Positions 29,470-37,175 of a stretch of 64,000 nucleotides of DNA are shown here, one piece after another. The translations under genes and the position numbers were made by a program. Source of the DNA: Triparma columacea. Lineage: Eukaryota; Sar; Bolidophyceae; Parmales; Triparmaceae. Position 1 is the first letter of the stretch. The number at the start of each line of letters is the position of its first letter. The DNA lies in assembly GCA_030267965.1 (NCBI GenBank), contig BRYA01001055.1, positions 4,529 to 68,528 of the forward strand. Reading direction: 5' to 3'. The notes below the pieces were generated by a model, which saw nothing but the letters and a program-made list of their open reading frames with translations, was not told the origin of the DNA and did not search any database.

Positions 29470-30860
29470 TCACCAACCATCACAAACGTCCCAAATGTCG
29501 ACAACCTCCTCGCCCTCAACAACATTTATTACACGATGTTGGTGAATCGAAGCGCAGGAATGCCAAGGCAAGATAAAGAGCATCTTACCGATTGGGTACT
29601 TGCTGAAGTCAATCTTGCTCCCGTCCTTGGTAGTGACCGTCCCCGCCTCCTGCTTCAGATTATCAATCTTAAGGTTGTCTTCGAACTCAATGGCACCGTA
29701 ATTGTATTCCTTCCCCTGCGCGCTCGTCCCAGTCCAGCCACAATCGATCTGGAGCGTGTTCGTGTGAGGATAGTGGCCAACGATTCTTGTGCAGACCTTA
29801 CACGCAATGTCCTCAAGGGCGCAGCTTCCGATGAGGTGTTGGTTATAGTCGTAGGTGAAGTAGTTCCCCGGGTGCATTTCACTGATTTCGTCAAGGTTCG
29901 AAGGTGGATGTGAGCACGTTGGAGTGGACCCGACCCCTGTGATCAACTTCCCCTGGGGCGAAGCGAAGCGGCGAGGCGAGGTTTGTATTAGTAACTGACG
30001 AGGGAACGTCCGTCGTCAACACTCCTCCCCTTTTGCTTTGTGTGCCTCAATCTCACCTCCTCCGCCAATCCGGCTTCGTATAGCTTCTTTGCAAACTTTA
30101 CGACCGTGTCCCTCTCCTGCTCGCTCGTCTGAACAATCTCCGCAATATTCCCGTACTCCACATCGTAGCTATGTCCCCCATGGGTGTATAGCATGTAGAG
30201 ATTGGCTTTGCCATCGCTGCCCTTGATCCTTTCGACGATTTTCATAGCTTCGTCAGAGTCCACATCAACGCCATCTGCGAATTGGGTGATGAGCGAAGAG
30301 AAAACGATGAGCAAAGATAAATCATGACACCCAAGCATGCCTTGCTCACCTCTTCCATAACCTGAGTCGCACATTAAGACGATCGACCACGGTTTTTCCC
30401 CACTGTGAGTAAGGAGGGCATCAAGCTGCTGCAAATTGTCAACCATGACGTGCAGGGAGGTTTTTTCGCAAAGACGTGCAGCGCGCTCCACTTTTGTTGG
30501 ATCGATGGGCACTGCGTACACGATATCAGAGAAACCTGCATCAGCAAACCACTCTGCTTCGGCTAGTGTGCTTACAGTGATCTTGGATGTCCGATTGTTT
30601 GTCTGGATTAGCGCTCCTTGGATCGATTTATGGGTTTTCACATGTGGTCTGAGCTCGACGCCCAATTTTTCAGCCCTCTCGAGCATTCTGTTGCTGTTTT
30701 TTGTTACGACACTTCGATCTAGTATGACTGAGGGAGTGGTCAATTTGGATACTGGAAAGGGTATATTCGAAGAAGCGGCCGTGGAGAGGGGTAACATTGC
30801 AAGCAACGAAGCAAGCTTCACCGACTTGCGACCAATTGAGGGTCCACGAGTTCCGAACAT
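29470..30860 (-). CDS. D-serine dehydratase-like / D-threonine aldolase-type PLP enzyme (3 exons)
   Basis: Exons 30860-30350, 30274-30057 and 29952-29470 join in frame to 403 aa; introns are 75 and 104 bp. An N-terminal hydrophobic stretch (LASLLAMLPLSTAASS) suggests a signal peptide. The fold-III (Ala racemase N-like) barrel shows TPSVILDRSVV and RPHVKTHK, whose Lys would bind PLP, and later CDSGYGRD and MLYTHGGHSYD. The C-terminal D-ser_dehydrat domain has the HSC pair (LPWHSCASIHQH), equivalent to the zinc-binding His and Cys of eukaryotic D-serine dehydratase, and ends in DVCDGW. Likely reaction: D-serine to pyruvate and ammonia, or cleavage of D-threonine. Both introns end with TTCGCTC- or CTTCGC-type motifs. 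Confidence 0.85.
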
Positions 30861-30970
30861 AAGAAGAAAGGATTGCTTTATCTGAAATGTCCTTCATTTC
30901 GACTTTCACTTCACCAATCCCTTCACGAATGTTTTCTACTGTGCTCAGCTCGCCTGGCCGTGCCGCCTCT

Positions 30971-33786
30971 TCAAACACTTCCCTGTTCATCTTCGAGAAT
31001 TTCCATGGCGTTATCAACGTAACTACAAATTTGCTGCCTCAATGCTCCCAGCATGTTTTCCTCGTTGAATATCTCTCCCGTCAACTTCTCTACAAGCTTG
31101 TTGCAGTTGATGAGCTCGTCTTCCTGTTTGTTGAGGTCCTTAAGGTAACGCTCGAGAAGCTTGTTCGTTGCACTGTTGTTGACGACGTGCTCGAAGTTCT
31201 TGATGTTCTCCCTCAACCTCGCTTGAATCTCCTTAATATCTTCTTTGTTAGACTTCTGAGTTTTGATGCTCCTCTTCTTCTCTTCGATCTTGTTCTTGAG
31301 GACGAGCCACTTTTCCGTCTCCTGGATGACCACCCTAAGGTAGGACTTCGTCATGATCACCTTACAGCGATCGATGTCAGCTTGGTTAATGTGTCCGTTG
31401 CGCAATTTGGTAAGCTCCTCCTTGAGCTGCCTCAACGCTATGAGACCCTCAAGGTCGCTCATGAACTGCTTCGAGACCTTGTTGGACGAAACGAGCTGCG
31501 GAATAATCTTCTTGTGGAAGGAAAGGAGATCATAGAGAGACCTAAGTTGGCGGCCGTACTGGGCCTCCTCCTTGACGCAGAATTCGATCTCTTGCTCAGG
31601 GGCGAGGTTGAACTCAAACCTGGAAAAGTTCGCCGTCTTCTTGACGCACTTGTCTTGAGTTGTGATGACGAAGCCTCCGTGGAGAGGGGAGGCAGTGTGA
31701 TCGACATAGAGCTTACTCACAGACTTTTCTGAAGAGCAGTTCTTAATCGTGTACTTAGTCTCGCGCTCCGCCTGAAAACAAACTTGGATTCCATCGTTTT
31801 TCTGCCTCCCACTGCAATCGATGTATGTAAGCTCACACCTGATGATCTCGTCTTTGTTTGATCCCTCAGTAACTTTTCTAGCAACATCCACTGAACTGTC
31901 ATAAGCGAAAGGGTGTTTTGAAGAGGGTGAGAATTTTCGTGGTGATAAAGGGAGGGAGGGGATCTACGCTCGACCTTACCTGTCTTCTCCGTACTCAATG
32001 AGCTCGTCGTCTCCGGGAATCATGGGGGTGAAGTTGATTTGAGAAACGAACCTGTCGTCGTCGAAGATACTCATGTCTCCCGGGGAAAGCGGAGTATCGC
32101 TATCGTTGAAGAGGTGAATAACTTTCTTCACAGCAACCTCACTCTCCTTTGGGTCGTAGTGCAGAACACGGTCCCCGAGGAGGGCAAAGTTTCCGATCGG
32201 AACCATAGCAGATTCTGTGACGAGTGAATCGAAGCGAAGACCGAAGGGTTGCTGTTAAGTGGTTGGGTTGTCTTTTTGTGATTTTCATCCACCCTCTCAC
32301 CTCCCGACTTGATGGAGCATAGTTCCTTGCTCTCGTAGATCACATCGTGCATCTGGCACTGCCTGACGTTGAGTGACTCGTACTGAAAGTCATCATCGTC
32401 CACCGTGATATTGCGAGACGTCGCCTGAAGTGACACGTTTCCAGGTCCCCCACGAAGGCGCAGGACGAGGTGGATGGTAGACTCCTTCTGGATGTTGTAG
32501 TCCATAAGGGAGCGGCCATCATCGAGCTGCTTTCCGGCGAAGATGAGGCGTTGCTGGTCCGGGGGAATTCCCTCCTTGTCTTGGATTTTTTTCTTCACAG
32601 CGTCGATGGTATCAGAATACTCGGTGTCAAGGGTTATGGTCTTGCCGGTGAGTGTCTTGACGAAGATGTTGCCGCCACTGGAGTAGTTGGCTTTTTTAAT
32701 CTCCGCCATTGCCTTCGATTTAGCAACGGGGTTGGAAGAGGACGACGATGAAAGAAGGGTGACCTCGGAGGGAACAAGAGAAATAGAAATGTTTGACCAG
32801 TCCTCAGAAGTGGTGTTGGTGACGTTTCCAAAGACGTTGAGGTAAACCCTGCTGTCGGTTGCGAGGGATGTGGAGTCAGCCATGGCATCGGCGTCGTCGA
32901 TCGCGGAGGCAGCAACAAACTCAGACTGAACTTGGTCCCAGTCGCGGTTCTCCTTTGGGATGTTCATTCGGTACGAGCACCTCCACTCCTTCATCTTTCC
33001 AACATGACCGACAGACATTTTTCTCGGCTCCTCGTCGCTACCACTCCTCTTCGTCTTGATGCTGATTCTCGTCTTCCCGGTGGGGTTAGGCTTGGGCTTC
33101 TTGTTGGACATGTTCTTACTAAGAGCTGCCATGAGCTGCTCCTGGAGGTACTGGTCGATTATCCTAAAGGACTTTAGGGAGGAGAGGGGGATTGAGGAGA
33201 CAGTGCAGGTCGCAGAGTTGAGGATTGATATTTGGGAGTAGAACTCAATGACGGGAGAATCATGACGCAATTGCTCTTTCTTCTTTTCGATCGACATCAA
33301 CAGGCACTCGGTAATCGCACCGTCTGTCGTTGTCAACTCAAGTCTGGATCCAATGAGTGAGGACAGAATATCACCCTGAGACTTGAGGACACCGAAGTTG
33401 AACGGGAAGAGGTTAGTATCAGAAGGGGTGTCGCCAGGAACGGGGTTCGAGGTGAGGTTAGATGTGTCCTTCGAATCAAAGTTTATTGAAACGGAGGTTG
33501 TATCGGGAGGAGGAGTGAGGGAAAGAGTGTCAACTGCGGTTTTGGGGGTCGAGAGTGGAGTAGGGGGGTGGAGATTGGTGTGTTAGGGTAGTCAGGTGGT
33601 GCAAGGGTAGCGAAAACCCACGTATTGGCTTTCCAAGATTGAAGGCTCACCCACGAGGTCTCTCTCTTTTTGTTGAACTTCCAATATGTAATCATTTCCT
33701 CCGTCAGCCTTCGCCTCGCGTTGAAAGAAGGCAAGAGGAGAGGTGTAGAGTGTAACGTGTTTGAGCGATAATTGTTTGGGGGACTG
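30971..33786 (-). CDS. DUF4139 protein with an embedded full-length ubiquitin domain (4 exons)
   Basis: Exons 33786-33651, 33533-32301, 32214-31980 and 31895-30971 join in frame to 842 aa. The N-terminal ~110 residues ([13 protein letters not shown] ... VSINFD ... [10 protein letters not shown]) and WRCSYRMNI with NTTSEDW are DUF4139-type sequence, as is the later [17 protein letters not shown] part. Between them, residues 333-408 (32673-32446) are a complete 76-residue ubiquitin with 12 substitutions. All seven Lys, the L8-I44-V70 patch and the terminal LRLRGG are kept; Met1 is Gly. The next residue is Pro. The C-terminal ~200 residues are coiled-coil-like ([13 protein letters not shown] and on). 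Function unknown; cytosolic by lack of signal. Confidence 0.85.
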
Positions 33787-34168
33787 CATTTTGATTTGCT
33801 AAGAATTTTGCTTTGGTAGGATCCTTGTTGTTGGGTCTTGCATGAGGAAATATCTTGAGTCTTGAATACCGAGGGGAAAATTGGGGTGATGAGAGACTGA
33901 AAAGGGTCGGGTGAGGGACGGACAGTCCGGTCTAAGTGATAAGAGGTAGGAGCACTCCATGAAAAGGCGCTTAAAATGCCTTTCTCCAAAGCAACCCAAC
34001 CCAATAGGACCAAAGCCAAAAAAATTATTTCTCTTCTGTAAGATCGATTGAAGAGTATTTGGAGTATTTTTGGAGCTAATAGATACTCAACTGGAGCTTG
34101 AGAGGTAGTAGTCAACATAAAGGTCGCGAATTAAAAAAACTAGCCTCACAAAAACACCTCGGCTTTCC
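33787..34168. other. Divergent promoter region
   Basis: 382 bp between the start codons of the DUF4139/ubiquitin gene (minus) and the GlcG/HbpS gene (plus). No further gene seen. Confidence 0.6.
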
Positions 34169-34826: not shown

Positions 34827-35809
34827 TTATACTCTATCGTGATTTCTGAACTTCCCCCTCCTCATCGCCTCCCACCTCCTATTAACCTCCCTGCACTCCT
34901 CTTCCCTCCCCCTGTTCTTCTCCCAAGTCTCCCTCCCCCACTTCTTCAAGTTCCCCACCCTCTCCCCGTGGCTTGGGTGTGTGCTTAGGTAAGAGCTCCC
35001 CCCTCCCCCCCTACCACCCCCCTTACGCTTCTCGTCCTTCTCCATCCTTTCGAAAACCTTGCTAGCATCCCTCGGGTCAAAGCAAGCCCTCCCCATCAAC
35101 TCAACCCCGATAAGATCAGCCTCCCTTTCCATATCTCGGCTGTGCGGCAGCTCGTACAGGAAAGATTTACCAATCGTCAATACCTTGAACGCTGCGGCGC
35201 TTGAATCACCCCCAAAAATCAAACCTGATATACCTGCCAACGCCAGTGTTGCAAGGCTGGAGACTCCGCTATCTGTTACCTTCTCCCCGGTATGACGTGC
35301 CAGGACGTGGCCGATCTCGTGGGCTATAACCGCCGCTAGTTCTGATTCTGTACGGGCGTATTTGAACATACCAGAGTAAATTACTATATGACCGGGTGGA
35401 AGGGCAAAGGCGTTGGGTTGAGATTTATCAGAGACCGTGACGAAATTCCACCGTTTGTTAGCGTCTGTTGATGTTGCCGCGAGACGGTGACCTATTGCTG
35501 ATACTGTACTGCTGGCAGGGTGTGAGGGTGGCAGGATTGTCAAGCTTGAAGATTTTTTTATTTGCTCAAAGGATGCAGATCCTAGTTGTGCTTCGTAGTG
35601 AGGGGTAGTTAAGATGTGACGAGATCGGTTGCTTACTGGTACTAGGAGAAGGGTTAGTAGACTGAAAATGTCATCAACCCTCCCCCCTTTTGGAACGATT
35701 CCCTGAATTCTAGAATGGAAGTAAACTCACCTGTATTTTCCGTCTTTTTGTGGATGTAGTAACCAACAGACCCCAAAACCGGGATCGTAGCCGCTGCCGT
35801 TCTGATCAT
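34827..35809 (-). CDS. M48-family (Oma1-like) zinc metallopeptidase (2 exons)
   Basis: Exons 35809-35731 and 35641-34827 join in frame to 297 aa. Exon 1 encodes a short N-terminal hydrophobic region (AATIPVLGSVGYYIH) typical of Oma1-like proteins, then VPVSNRSRHILTTP and YEAQLGSASF. The catalytic motif is AAVIAHEIGHVLARH (HExxH), the third ligand region is DMEREADLIGVELM, and the C-terminal STHPSHGERV motif is family-standard. A membrane-anchored protease of mitochondria or plastid acting in protein quality control is likely. The start codon lies only 46 bp from that of the divergent transporter gene. Confidence 0.9.
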
Positions 35810-35855
35810 AGATTTTTTGGCTGGTTTTGGAGAGGTGCCTAGAGACCGAAGAAAA

Positions 35856-37175
35856 ATGTCAGGTTGTAATCTCGCAATACTGGCACTCGTTGCCTTCTTA
35901 TTGCTGGGTGTGGGTGTAGATTCGTTTTCTCCGTCTGTTCATACCCCTAAACTCCCACATAACCTTCACTTTCCTGATTTTATTGACTGTCATCATGGCG
36001 TCCTTGCCTCCTTTCATTCTCAATCCTCTTCTTCTCTTCGCCATCTTTACGCCAAGCCCCCCCTTCCTCCCTCTCCCATCGAAGAGAGTCTTAAATCAAA
36101 GCTTCCTGCCGTCAACGTCCTCTCAAAAATCCATGATACTTCAGTGTCACCCTCACCCCATGTGTCACCCTCTACCCATCCCCTACCCCCCCCATCCTAC
36201 CACCCAATAGACAAAGCATCCCTACCCACCCCCTCCTGGAAGTCCAGCCGGTCCGTCTGGATAGCCGCAGTCGCCGTAGTTTCCATATGTTGGGGTATGA
36301 ATTTCCCAGTCACCAAGCTGGTTACTGATTCCTCCACCCCCGCCTTAACCGTCCCTCCCGGTTCCTTCGTTGCTATACGTTTCGGCCTCGCGGGGCTGGC
36401 TTTCTCGCCCCTCCTCGCGAGGAGTGAGGACCTTGGGAAGACGCTTAGAGCTGGGGCGGAGGTTGGGATATATTTGGCCTTGGGTTATGTGAGCCAGGCG
36501 GTGGGGCTGGTAACGGAGGGGGCGGGGGAGGCGGGTTTCCTGTGCTCGCTCCAGGTTGTTTTTGTGACGCTCGTCGGGGCGGTTAGGAAGGGGGGGATCA
36601 CATTCAGAGAGGGCCTGAGCGCAATGCTGGCTGTGGCGGGGGTGGGGGTACTTGAGGGGATTGGGGGGGGGATGGAACTGGGACCGGGGTTCTGGCTGCT
36701 TATGCTGCAGCCGTTCATGTTCGGGATGAGCTACCTGAGAATCGAGAAGTACATGAAGTCCACGGACAGCCTGAGCTTCACTGCAAGCCAGCTGATTTTC
36801 ACAGCGTTGTTCGCGGGAATTTACAGCGTAGTGGGCGAGGGGGGGGTAGAAGGTCTAGCGGGTAGCTTCGGTGGTATCGTCGGTGACGGTTGGCTCAGCC
36901 CTCAGGCTCTGGCTGTCGCTTACACTGCGGTGTTCGGAACCATCATCAGCATAGCGCTGGAGACGGAGGCACTCAAGCACGTTAGCCCGAGGGAGACGAG
37001 CGTGGTGCTGACGACGGAACCGCTGATTGCAGGGCTGGGGGGGGCGTGGCTACTGCATGAACAATTCCAAGGGTGGCTAGGAGCGGCGCTCATCTTGGGG
37101 GCTAGCGCAGTCACTTTTTTACCAGCTTTTGGGGGGGAAGGAGGGGAAGGGGGGGGGGGGGAAACGGGGGAGTAA
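35856..37175 (+). CDS. EamA/DMT-family transporter, possibly organellar
   Basis: Single exon, 439 aa from the ATG at 35856. The N-terminus is a signal-like segment (ILALVAFLLLGVGVDSFSPS) followed by an S/P/H-rich region of about 90 residues, then ten predicted membrane helices. The segments SICWGMNFPVTKLV and FVAIRFGLAGLAF open EamA repeat 1, and the segments AYTAVFGTIISIALE, VVLTTEPLIAGLGGAWLLHE and GAALILGASAV close repeat 2. The leader could be a bipartite plastid signal (D-S-F-S-P at the cleavage region), which would fit an alga with a secondary plastid. Substrate unknown. The C-terminus is Gly/Glu-rich. Confidence 0.85.
   Translation: MSGCNLAILALVAFLLLGVGVDSFSPSVHTPKLPHNLHFPDFIDCHHGVLASFHSQSSSSLRHLYAKPPLPPSPIEESLKSKLPAVNVLSKIHDTSVSPSPHVSPSTHPLPPPSYHPIDKASLPTPSWKSSRSVWIAAVAVVSICWGMNFPVTKLVTDSSTPALTVPPGSFVAIRFGLAGLAFSPLLARSEDLGKTLRAGAEVGIYLALGYVSQAVGLVTEGAGEAGFLCSLQVVFVTLVGAVRKGGITFREGLSAMLAVAGVGVLEGIGGGMELGPGFWLLMLQPFMFGMSYLRIEKYMKSTDSLSFTASQLIFTALFAGIYSVVGEGGVEGLAGSFGGIVGDGWLSPQALAVAYTAVFGTIISIALETEALKHVSPRETSVVLTTEPLIAGLGGAWLLHEQFQGWLGAALILGASAVTFLPAFGGEGGEGGGGETGE

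What the first reader, a model, noticed from the sequence alone, without database searches (positions are those of the whole stretch)
30971..33786. Full-length ubiquitin inserted in the middle of a DUF4139 protein
The exon model (842 aa, all junctions in frame) places a 76-residue ubiquitin at residues 333-408, within DUF4139-type sequence. Twelve substitutions against canonical ubiquitin (M1G, Q2N, E16D, V17T, P19Y, E24D, N25A, A28K, E51D, T55S, S57M, L67I), yet all seven lysines, the Ile44 patch and LRLRGG remain. It is a domain insertion, not a polyubiquitin or terminal fusion. The residue after GG is Pro; ubiquitin-Pro fusions are known to be cleaved poorly by deubiquitylases, so the insert may be a permanent docking or chain-seeding module rather than a pro-form. 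The retained lysines suggest selection to be extended or recognised.
Basis: partly seen in the sequence, partly recalled or inferred. Interest (0 to 1): 0.78.

Follow-up and report, generated by a model that had tools for sequence, protein, structure and literature searches.

The report
Uncleavable ubiquitin inside a DUF4139-like protein
An algal gene carries a complete ubiquitin, the cell's protein tag, built into the middle of another protein, and relatives in amoebae, dinoflagellates, diatoms and rotifers nearly all keep it there in forms that should resist being cut out, which suggests a permanent built-in tag that other proteins recognise.

Summary
A four-exon minus-strand gene (33789-30971) encodes 843 residues with a full ubiquitin at 334-409, inside one exon, within a DUF4139-like scaffold. 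It is not peculiar to this genome: searches baited with the flanks alone found relatives in Triparma, diatoms, dinoflagellates, amoebozoans (Acanthamoeba Ublp94.4) and bdelloid rotifers; 137 sequences, window included, hold a full-length ubiquitin there.

The tail is the strongest evidence. 73 of 137 keep GlyGly, and 68 of those 73 put Pro next, which impairs deubiquitylase cleavage. The other 64 lack GlyGly, in 63 through Gly76. In 20 independent pairs on a tree the two features go together (median p 8e-6), so selection has favoured an uncleavable ubiquitin; five members break the rule. Residues 72-75, the Ile44 patch and Lys6/11/48/63 stay 98-99% intact; residues 16-28 drift. AlphaFold puts the domain on two disordered tethers. 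Bacterial relatives hold OmpA or carboxypeptidase-regulatory domains in the corresponding gap.

Best reading: a permanent, cleavage-proof ubiquitin displayed from a cytosolic scaffold to dock ubiquitin-binding proteins. The partner is unknown. Lys29, needed for yeast ubiquitin-fusion degradation, is missing in 17 of 137, so a general degron role is unlikely. In the papers searched only Ublp94.4 appeared, as a line in a proteomics table.

The parts
33651..33789 (-). Exon 1 of the gene (N-terminus of the scaffold)
   Evidence: Exon model; intron 1 junction fits RDL.VDTL in relatives P0002 and P0003; not covered by P0001
32301..33533 (-). Exon 2: rest of the N-terminal scaffold, first tether, ubiquitin, second tether
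   Evidence: one block, 99% identical to P0001
32446..32673 (-). Full-length ubiquitin, residues 334-409
   Evidence: PF00240, 96 bits
32443..32445 (-). Pro410, the codon directly after LRLRGG
   Evidence: 68 of 73 GG-bearing members have Pro here
32674..32763 (-). First tether (about residues 304-333), placed by homology to the disordered stretch of P0003
   Evidence: P0003 residues 293-322 have pLDDT under 50
32338..32445 (-). Second tether (about residues 410-445), placed by homology to P0003
   Evidence: P0003 residues 397-435 have pLDDT under 50
31980..32214 (-). Exon 3: part of the second half of the DUF4139-like domain
30971..31895 (-). Exon 4: rest of the scaffold and C-terminal helical region (by homology to P0003), stop codon at the low end

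Best explanation
The gene encodes a cytosolic scaffold (DUF4139-like beta domains plus a C-terminal helical hairpin) that displays one complete, cleavage-proof ubiquitin from a loop between two strands. SHOWN by sequence: the insertion; its conservation in several eukaryotic supergroups; two alternative tail states, both of which should prevent cleavage after residue 76; retention of most of residues 1-75 outside the 16-28 stretch. PREDICTED: the domain folds as ubiquitin and hangs on two disordered tethers. INFERRED: (1) the domain is folded and reachable by deubiquitylases, since otherwise selection against a cleavable tail would have nothing to act on; (2) it acts as a built-in, permanent monoubiquitin that recruits ubiquitin readers through the Ile44/Ile36 faces and the LRLRG tail, the way a reversible ubiquitin mark would, but always on; (3) the DUF4139 gap is a general display slot, since bacterial relatives hold other modules there, among them OmpA-family domains. 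The conserved 72-75 tail points to a reader that touches the tail (a deubiquitylase or a conjugation enzyme) rather than only an Ile44-patch binder. Which reader, and what the scaffold does with it, is not known.
For: Flank-only searches (searches used residues C-terminal to Ub only; an alignment with Ub excised) still returned Ub-bearing proteins: of 162 sequences with the window, 137 have full Ub, 6 partial, 19 none; of the 19, 15 are DUF4139-type proteins without Ub and 4 are short records that lack the Ub stretch or start inside it. Tail: GG in 73/137, Pro next in 68/73; only 8/64 of the others have Pro next; Pro is enriched at +1 (68/73, against 8/73 at +2). On a tree built without the trait columns, 20 independent pairs differ in GG; Pro goes with GG in 18.0 on average, against it in 0.1, no difference in 1.9; median p 7.6e-6, range 1.9e-6 to 2.8e-4. 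Conservation over 137: tail 72-75 544/548, Ile44 patch 541/548, Ile36 patch 404/411, Lys6/11/48/63 539/548, against residues 16-20, 24-26, 28 at 595/1233 and residue 76 at 74/137. AlphaFold: Ub folded, tethers pLDDT under 50. By a crude hydropathy window none of 106 members with both flanks has a signal-like N-terminus, against 11 of 15 Ub-less relatives. Bacterial-type members carry CarboxypepD_reg or OmpA inside the DUF4139 match, after the same DW strand.
Against: Five of 137 have GG followed by Thr, Gly, Gln, Ile or Cys (P0012, P0110, P0114, P0136, P0153) and should be cleavable. A simpler reason for the tail rule is that any cleavable ubiquitin here would cut the scaffold in two; that explains why it must be uncleavable, not why the rest stays ubiquitin. 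P0057 has only 44/76 identity and lost Lys6, 11, 29, 33 and 48, so the function may be lost there. No partner, no in vivo band and no structure is known. Disorder in the model rests on pLDDT only; inter-domain error was not available. The exact register of the OmpA insert relative to the ubiquitin site was not determined. Ordinary ubiquitin fusions were not run through the same tail count as a control beyond three copies in this genome.
Confidence: 0.6

Rival explanations
1. Chain-seeding platform: the embedded ubiquitin is the fixed first unit on which K48, K63 or K11 chains are built, so that the scaffold carries an anchored polyubiquitin chain.
For: Lys6, 11, 48, 63 kept in 134-135 of 137, with only 2 rows changed at each of them among 124 tree rows, against 16 rows and at least 15 separate changes at Lys29; Ile44 patch kept; flexible display.
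Against: Elongation should not need the 72-75 tail, yet it is kept at 544/548; Lys29 is missing in 17 and Lys33 in 7 of 137; lysine retention also fits recognition alone. No evidence of ubiquitylation.
Confidence: 0.15
2. Ubiquitin-fusion degron: an uncleavable ubiquitin that marks the host protein for constant turnover, as in the yeast UFD pathway.
For: Ub-Pro and Ub-G76V fusions are UFD substrates in yeast (passages of PMC8605321; PMC12606439); the family uses those two kinds of uncleavable tail.
Against: UFD reporters carry ubiquitin at the N-terminus; here it is internal. [quoted passage not shown] A constitutive degron is an odd thing to keep through so much evolution.
Confidence: 0.06
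3. Structural insert: the ubiquitin fold is kept as an inert or cis-docked building block and its surface conservation reflects contacts inside the protein.
For: Conserved position in the scaffold; one copy in each member aligned.
Against: Both tethers are predicted disordered and vary in length (24-58 residues before in 118 measured, 5-38 after in 117 measured, by a motif measure); a spacer would not need Lys63, Arg74 or Gly75; selection against cleavage would not be needed if it were hidden.
Confidence: 0.08
4. The near-ubiquitin sequence is maintained by gene conversion from ordinary ubiquitin genes and means nothing for function.
For: In this genome one ordinary copy (L001) shares 44 of 66 synonymous-choice codons with the insert, above the codon-usage null of 32.6 (P=0.0014, uncorrected for three comparisons).
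Against: The other two copies share 33 and 36 of 66, near the null (30.2 and 32.4); conversion would also tend to overwrite residues 16-28 and 57 and bring back Gly76 without Pro. Only this genome's DNA could be tested.
Confidence: 0.05
5. Pro-form: the ubiquitin is released by deubiquitylases, splitting the protein.
For: Intact LRLRGG in the window; five of 137 members have GG followed by another residue.
Against: Pro after GG in 68 of 73; Gly76 missing in 63 of the other 64; independent-pairs test.
Confidence: 0.03

Closest known systems
Ublp94.4 of Acanthamoeba castellanii (Q6WMU7 / AAQ16627; P0058 here)
   Same: Same family: ubiquitin at 341-416 in the corresponding place, single copy, residue 76 replaced (Cys). 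The protein exists: it is listed among host proteins in cedratvirus particles, 94.4 kDa, one unique peptide (table passage of PMC12724359).
   Different: No function or analysis was found; that table line is the only printed mention found (which listed 20 of 66 papers, those with most of the terms first).
Engineered uncleavable ubiquitin fusions (Ub-Pro, Ub-G76V; yeast UFD reporters)
   Same: The two ways of blocking cleavage, Pro after GG and a changed Gly76, are the ones this family uses (passages).
   Different: Those are laboratory constructs with ubiquitin at the N-terminus and are degraded; here it is internal, natural and conserved, and K29 is missing in 17 of 137.
Integral ubiquitin-like domain proteins (Rad23/ubiquilin type; recalled)
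   Same: A ubiquitin fold that is never released and serves for docking.
   Different: Here it is near-authentic ubiquitin (median 66 of 76 identical to human) with lysines and the LRLRG tail; the Rad23 model matches only through the Ub part (45.3 bits, cut-off 207.3, for P0003).
Bacterial-type DUF4139 proteins with OmpA or CarboxypepD_reg inserts (P0079, P0081; P0046, P0048, P0075)
   Same: Related scaffold with the insert inside the DUF4139 match, after the DW strand.
   Different: Hydrophobic signal-like N-termini and unrelated inserted domains; no ubiquitin.
Polyubiquitin and ubiquitin-ribosomal precursors (recalled)
   Same: Ubiquitin encoded inside a longer open frame.
   Different: Those are cut after GG; in this genome the three ordinary copies looked at are followed in the genomic frame by Gly, His or Val, not Pro.

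Membership tests
Ubiquitin (PF00240) | Profile score over the curated cut-off | tested here: met
   96.0 bits against 25.4 for the window protein; 40 of 40 relatives scanned match at E<=0.01
Ubiquitin as a conjugable modifier | A C-terminal GlyGly that can be exposed | tested here: not met
   By sequence: GG-Pro in the window; 132 of 137 members have Pro after GG or no GG
DUF4139 (PF13598) | Curated score in the window protein itself | tested here: not met
   18.1 bits, 21.6 with Ub removed, cut-off 31.8
DUF4139 (PF13598) | Score over the cut-off in a family member, with the match running on both sides of the insert | tested here: met
   P0137 40.5 bits at 273-561 around Ub 342-413; 37 of 40 at E<=0.01
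MuiA family (TIGR02231) | Curated cut-off 112.6 bits | tested here: not met
   43.1 bits (P0003) and 27.9 bits (P0034); window protein not run
Ubiquitin precursor (polyubiquitin, ribosomal fusion) | Cleavable GG-X junction | tested here: not met
   GG-Pro in the window; family rule
UFD substrate | N-terminal ubiquitin | tested here: not met
   Ub at residues 334-409 of 843
UFD substrate | Lys29 present | tested here: inconclusive
   Present in the window, absent in 17 of 137 members
Integral UBL docking proteins | Demonstrated binding partner of the UBL domain | not testable with these tools
   Needs pull-down or structure
Known fold for the scaffold | Clear match to a solved structure | tested here: inconclusive
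   Best Foldseek E 1.2e-3, probability 0.41, to a chain of an oligosaccharyltransferase complex; VIA-align rows nearly all to the helical end

The most novel reading that the evidence does not exclude
A natural, ancient, non-hydrolysable ubiquitin that works as a substrate mimic: its intact LRLRG tail sits in the cleft of a deubiquitylase (or other tail-reading enzyme) that cannot cut it, so the scaffold tethers or holds that enzyme. There are many ways to become uncleavable; this family almost only uses the two that leave residues 72-75 untouched.
Probability: 0.2. Interest if true: 0.86.

Novelty: new variant of a known kind. Interest (0 to 1): 0.74.

Why it matters
Ubiquitin is normally a reversible mark. 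Here evolution has kept a permanent one in distant eukaryotes and has repeatedly swapped between two ways of protecting it from cleavage. It is also a natural experiment: a ubiquitin lineage released from conjugation but not from recognition. Yeast mutational scans leave the conservation of some surface positions unexplained (passages of PMC4862753); residues that stay fixed here without Gly76 (for example Asn60, Gln62, Lys63, Arg74) must be needed for something other than being conjugated.

Tried and rejected
The Pfam DUF4139 search of the own genome found nothing, not even this gene, so it says nothing about paralogues; a protein search instead found the flanks only at this locus. One hit there, on C708, ran past the ubiquitin (query 289-455, 44%); a pairwise check of that ORF matched only the ubiquitin part well (E 7e-34; flanks E 0.9 or worse). 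A virus-contig scan with the Ub-excised alignment found no relative (22 pattern matches, none confirmed). Fold searches with the whole model listed ubiquitin-fold chains only (ubiquitin, its engineered variants, one NEDD8; 50 rows each); with the bacterial-type scaffold there was no clear match. A weak LSm4 match of the N-terminal scaffold (E 0.023) and a source name mentioning snRNP for P0013 were not confirmed: no Sm family among Pfam matches at E<=0.01 in 40 members. The MuiA search gave 924 papers, mostly other meanings of the word; 20 were listed, two of them on Pseudomonas, neither read. PMC11203134 was looked at for DUF4139 (one table passage): a Leishmania protein, no link to ubiquitin there. 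A gene-conversion reading was tested and not favoured. The tree is a quick LG+G4 one with flagged long branches (P0039, P0040, P0152, P0025) and 17 rows of unusual composition; of 137 full Ub members, 129 had a C-terminal flank of at least 330 residues, 5 near-duplicates were dropped, 124 plus 3 bacterial-type rows were used, and only starred branches counted in the pairs test. The 137 include the window and P0001, which is nearly the same protein. Searches for prior description: 'ubiquitin'+'DUF4139' (1 paper), 'DUF4139', 'Ublp94.4'/'Ublp' (20 listed), Acanthamoeba/ubiquitin-like/internal ubiquitin (20 listed), 'DUF4140', embedded/internal/non-cleavable ubiquitin (25 listed), uncleavable/natural ubiquitin fusion (12 listed); no listed title or abstract start describes this family. 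Only open-licence PubMed Central papers are covered.

Full report
WHAT IS THERE. The window lies in a 37.85-Mb, 789-contig assembly. On the minus strand a gene with exons 33789-33651, 33533-32301, 32214-31980 and 31895-30971 encodes 843 residues; the model was chosen among GT-AG combinations for its usual donors. The host's own ordinary ubiquitin copies already carry Asp16, Asp24 and Gln28, so ten positions separate the insert from the host's own ubiquitin: 1, 2, 17, 19, 25, 28, 51, 55, 57, 67.

ONE TRANSCRIPT. P0001, 99% identical over the C-terminal flank and from a 2,799-base contig, aligns to the genome in three blocks that coincide, within some 15 bases, with exons 2-4 (converted to window coordinates about 33537-32299, 32215-31979, 31909-30974), so the contig reads as a spliced message with ubiquitin and both flanks. 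Intron 1 is supported by homology only. Several relatives from transcriptome sources (MMETSP, EukProt; for example P0012, P0020, P0050) are single proteins of about 800 residues with ubiquitin inside.

THE SCAFFOLD. The window protein alone matches DUF4139 weakly (18.1 bits; 21.6 with the ubiquitin removed; cut-off 31.8), on both sides of the insert. Relatives match better: 37 of 40 at E<=0.01 and P0137 over the cut-off (40.5 bits, 273-561, with ubiquitin at 342-413). Three proteins without ubiquitin aligned with 19 that have it share the layout including the C-terminal motif RLRENIK...RY...QE (alignment A1). One Ub-less relative is named as an Acidobacteria MAG (P0046), and relatives of P0079 are Deltaproteobacteria and Myxococcota MAGs; the others are unnamed and called bacterial-type from their N-termini and domains. 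P0046, P0048 and P0075 hold a CarboxypepD_reg domain, and P0079 and P0081 an OmpA domain, inside the DUF4139 match and after the strand with the DW motif, that is, in the gap where the eukaryotic proteins hold ubiquitin; for the OmpA members the exact register was not worked out. The AlphaFold model of P0043 has this gap as a disordered stretch, residues 264-382, between strands 250-259 and 386-391 (mean pLDDT 73.2).

DISTRIBUTION. Three homology searches avoided ubiquitin as bait: residues 410-843 of the window protein (48 hits), a ubiquitin-excised alignment (40 hits), and residues 430-853 of the Acanthamoeba protein (104 hits). With the window there are 162 distinct sequences: 137 with full ubiquitin, 6 with partial or gapped ubiquitin, 19 with none. 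Of the 19, 15 are DUF4139-type proteins with no ubiquitin and 4 (P0073, P0083, P0148, P0150) are short records that lack the ubiquitin stretch or start inside it. No complete eukaryotic relative without ubiquitin turned up, although each search scored only about 8,000 candidates. Named sources include Triparma, Trieres (taxid 2839; listed as 'Odonte...'), Symbiodinium, Durusdinium, Effrenium, Acanthamoeba, Arcella, Vannella, Stereomyxa, Adineta and Rotaria; two names cut short in the listing appear to be Polarella and Pelagodinium.

THE TAIL RULE. Of 137, 73 have Gly75-Gly76, and 68 of these have Pro as the next residue. The other 64 lack GG, in 63 of them because residue 76 is not Gly (Asp 20, Ser 13, Glu 6, the rest rarer); 8 of these 64 have Pro next (Fisher p 1.4e-23, which ignores relatedness). 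Pro is enriched at +1: 68/73, against 8/73 at +2 and 15/73 at +3. Five members break the rule: P0012, P0110, P0114, P0136, P0153. On a tree of the C-terminal flank, starting 25 residues after the ubiquitin so that the trait is not in it (124 members, 3 bacterial-type rows), 20 independent pairs differ in GG; Pro follows GG in 18.0 of 20 on average, goes the other way in 0.1 and does not differ in 1.9 (median p 7.6e-6, range 1.9e-6 to 2.8e-4). A Pro directly after ubiquitin impairs cleavage by deubiquitylases (passage of PMC8605321), and G76V ubiquitin is used as a non-cleavable moiety (passage of PMC12606439); that each of the other residues at 76 also blocks cleavage is inference. So both states should give an uncleavable ubiquitin, and lineages move between them with few in the cleavable state. 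Selection against cleavage implies, by inference, that the domain is folded and meets deubiquitylases in the cell.

WHAT ELSE IS KEPT. Over the 137, identity to human ubiquitin is 98.7% at the Ile44 patch (541/548), 98.3% at the Ile36 patch (404/411), 99.3% at residues 72-75 (544/548) and 98.4% at Lys6/11/48/63 (539/548), but 48% at residues 16-20, 24-26 and 28 (595/1233), 91% at the Phe4 patch (373/411), 82% at the Asp58 patch (449/548) and 54% at residue 76 (patch definitions recalled). Lys29 is missing in 17 and Lys33 in 7; on the tree Lys29 needs at least 15 separate changes, Lys48, 63, 6 and 11 two each. [quoted passage not shown] Median identity is 66 of 76 (range 44-72).

GENE CONVERSION. 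Against three ordinary copies in this genome the insert shares 44, 33 and 36 of 66 codons at residues of equal amino acid, against codon-usage expectations of 32.6, 30.2 and 32.4. One copy is above chance (P=0.0014, uncorrected), so a partial old conversion is possible, but the sequence is not being held by wholesale recent conversion.

MECHANISM. The best-supported reading is a permanent monoubiquitin display for docking. The bacterial-type proteins suggest that the DUF4139 gap serves to present a binding module (OmpA-family domains bind cell wall; recalled). The retained tail narrows the likely reader to something that touches residues 72-75, such as a deubiquitylase or a conjugation enzyme; this is inference. 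Chain seeding remains possible; a fusion degron is unlikely because Lys29 is often missing and the position is internal.

STATUS. Members sit in databases under names such as 'Ubiquitin-like domain-containing protein', and one protein has been seen by mass spectrometry (Ublp94.4, one unique peptide, PMC12724359 table passage). The paper searches listed under Tried and rejected showed no description of the family.

Noticed in passing
G000:C241 (loci L005, L007): Neighbouring ORFs of about 275 aa with an N-terminal conserved domain (HQFIALK...DEVWHAHILYT) and a diverged C-terminal ubiquitin ending GGC-stop (53 and 57 of 76 identical to human ubiquitin), and a further frame with two more ubiquitin matches.
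   Followed up: partly
G000:C708 (loci L006, L008): Two neighbouring genes with a degenerate ubiquitin (56-57 of 76) followed in frame by more protein, one in a 310-aa frame; the one checked shows no good match to the DUF4139-like flanks.
   Followed up: partly
P0148 (relative, not in the window): A relative whose record starts downstream of the ubiquitin site carries a ubiquitin-conjugating-enzyme-like domain (UQ_con, 98.1 bits) at its C-terminus; where the catalytic Cys is expected (motif recalled) the sequence reads Arg. Could be a real fusion or a merged gene model.
   Followed up: no
Horizontal transfer is a possibility not tested.
   Followed up: no
P0025 (relative): A zinc ribbon (PF13240, 24.1 bits against a 25 cut-off) sits in the second half of the scaffold.
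   Followed up: no
window 29988-30893 (-), 34827-35726 (-), 35763-37175 (+): Neighbouring frames match alanine racemase N-terminal domain, peptidase M48 and EamA transporter; no evident link to ubiquitin.
   Followed up: no
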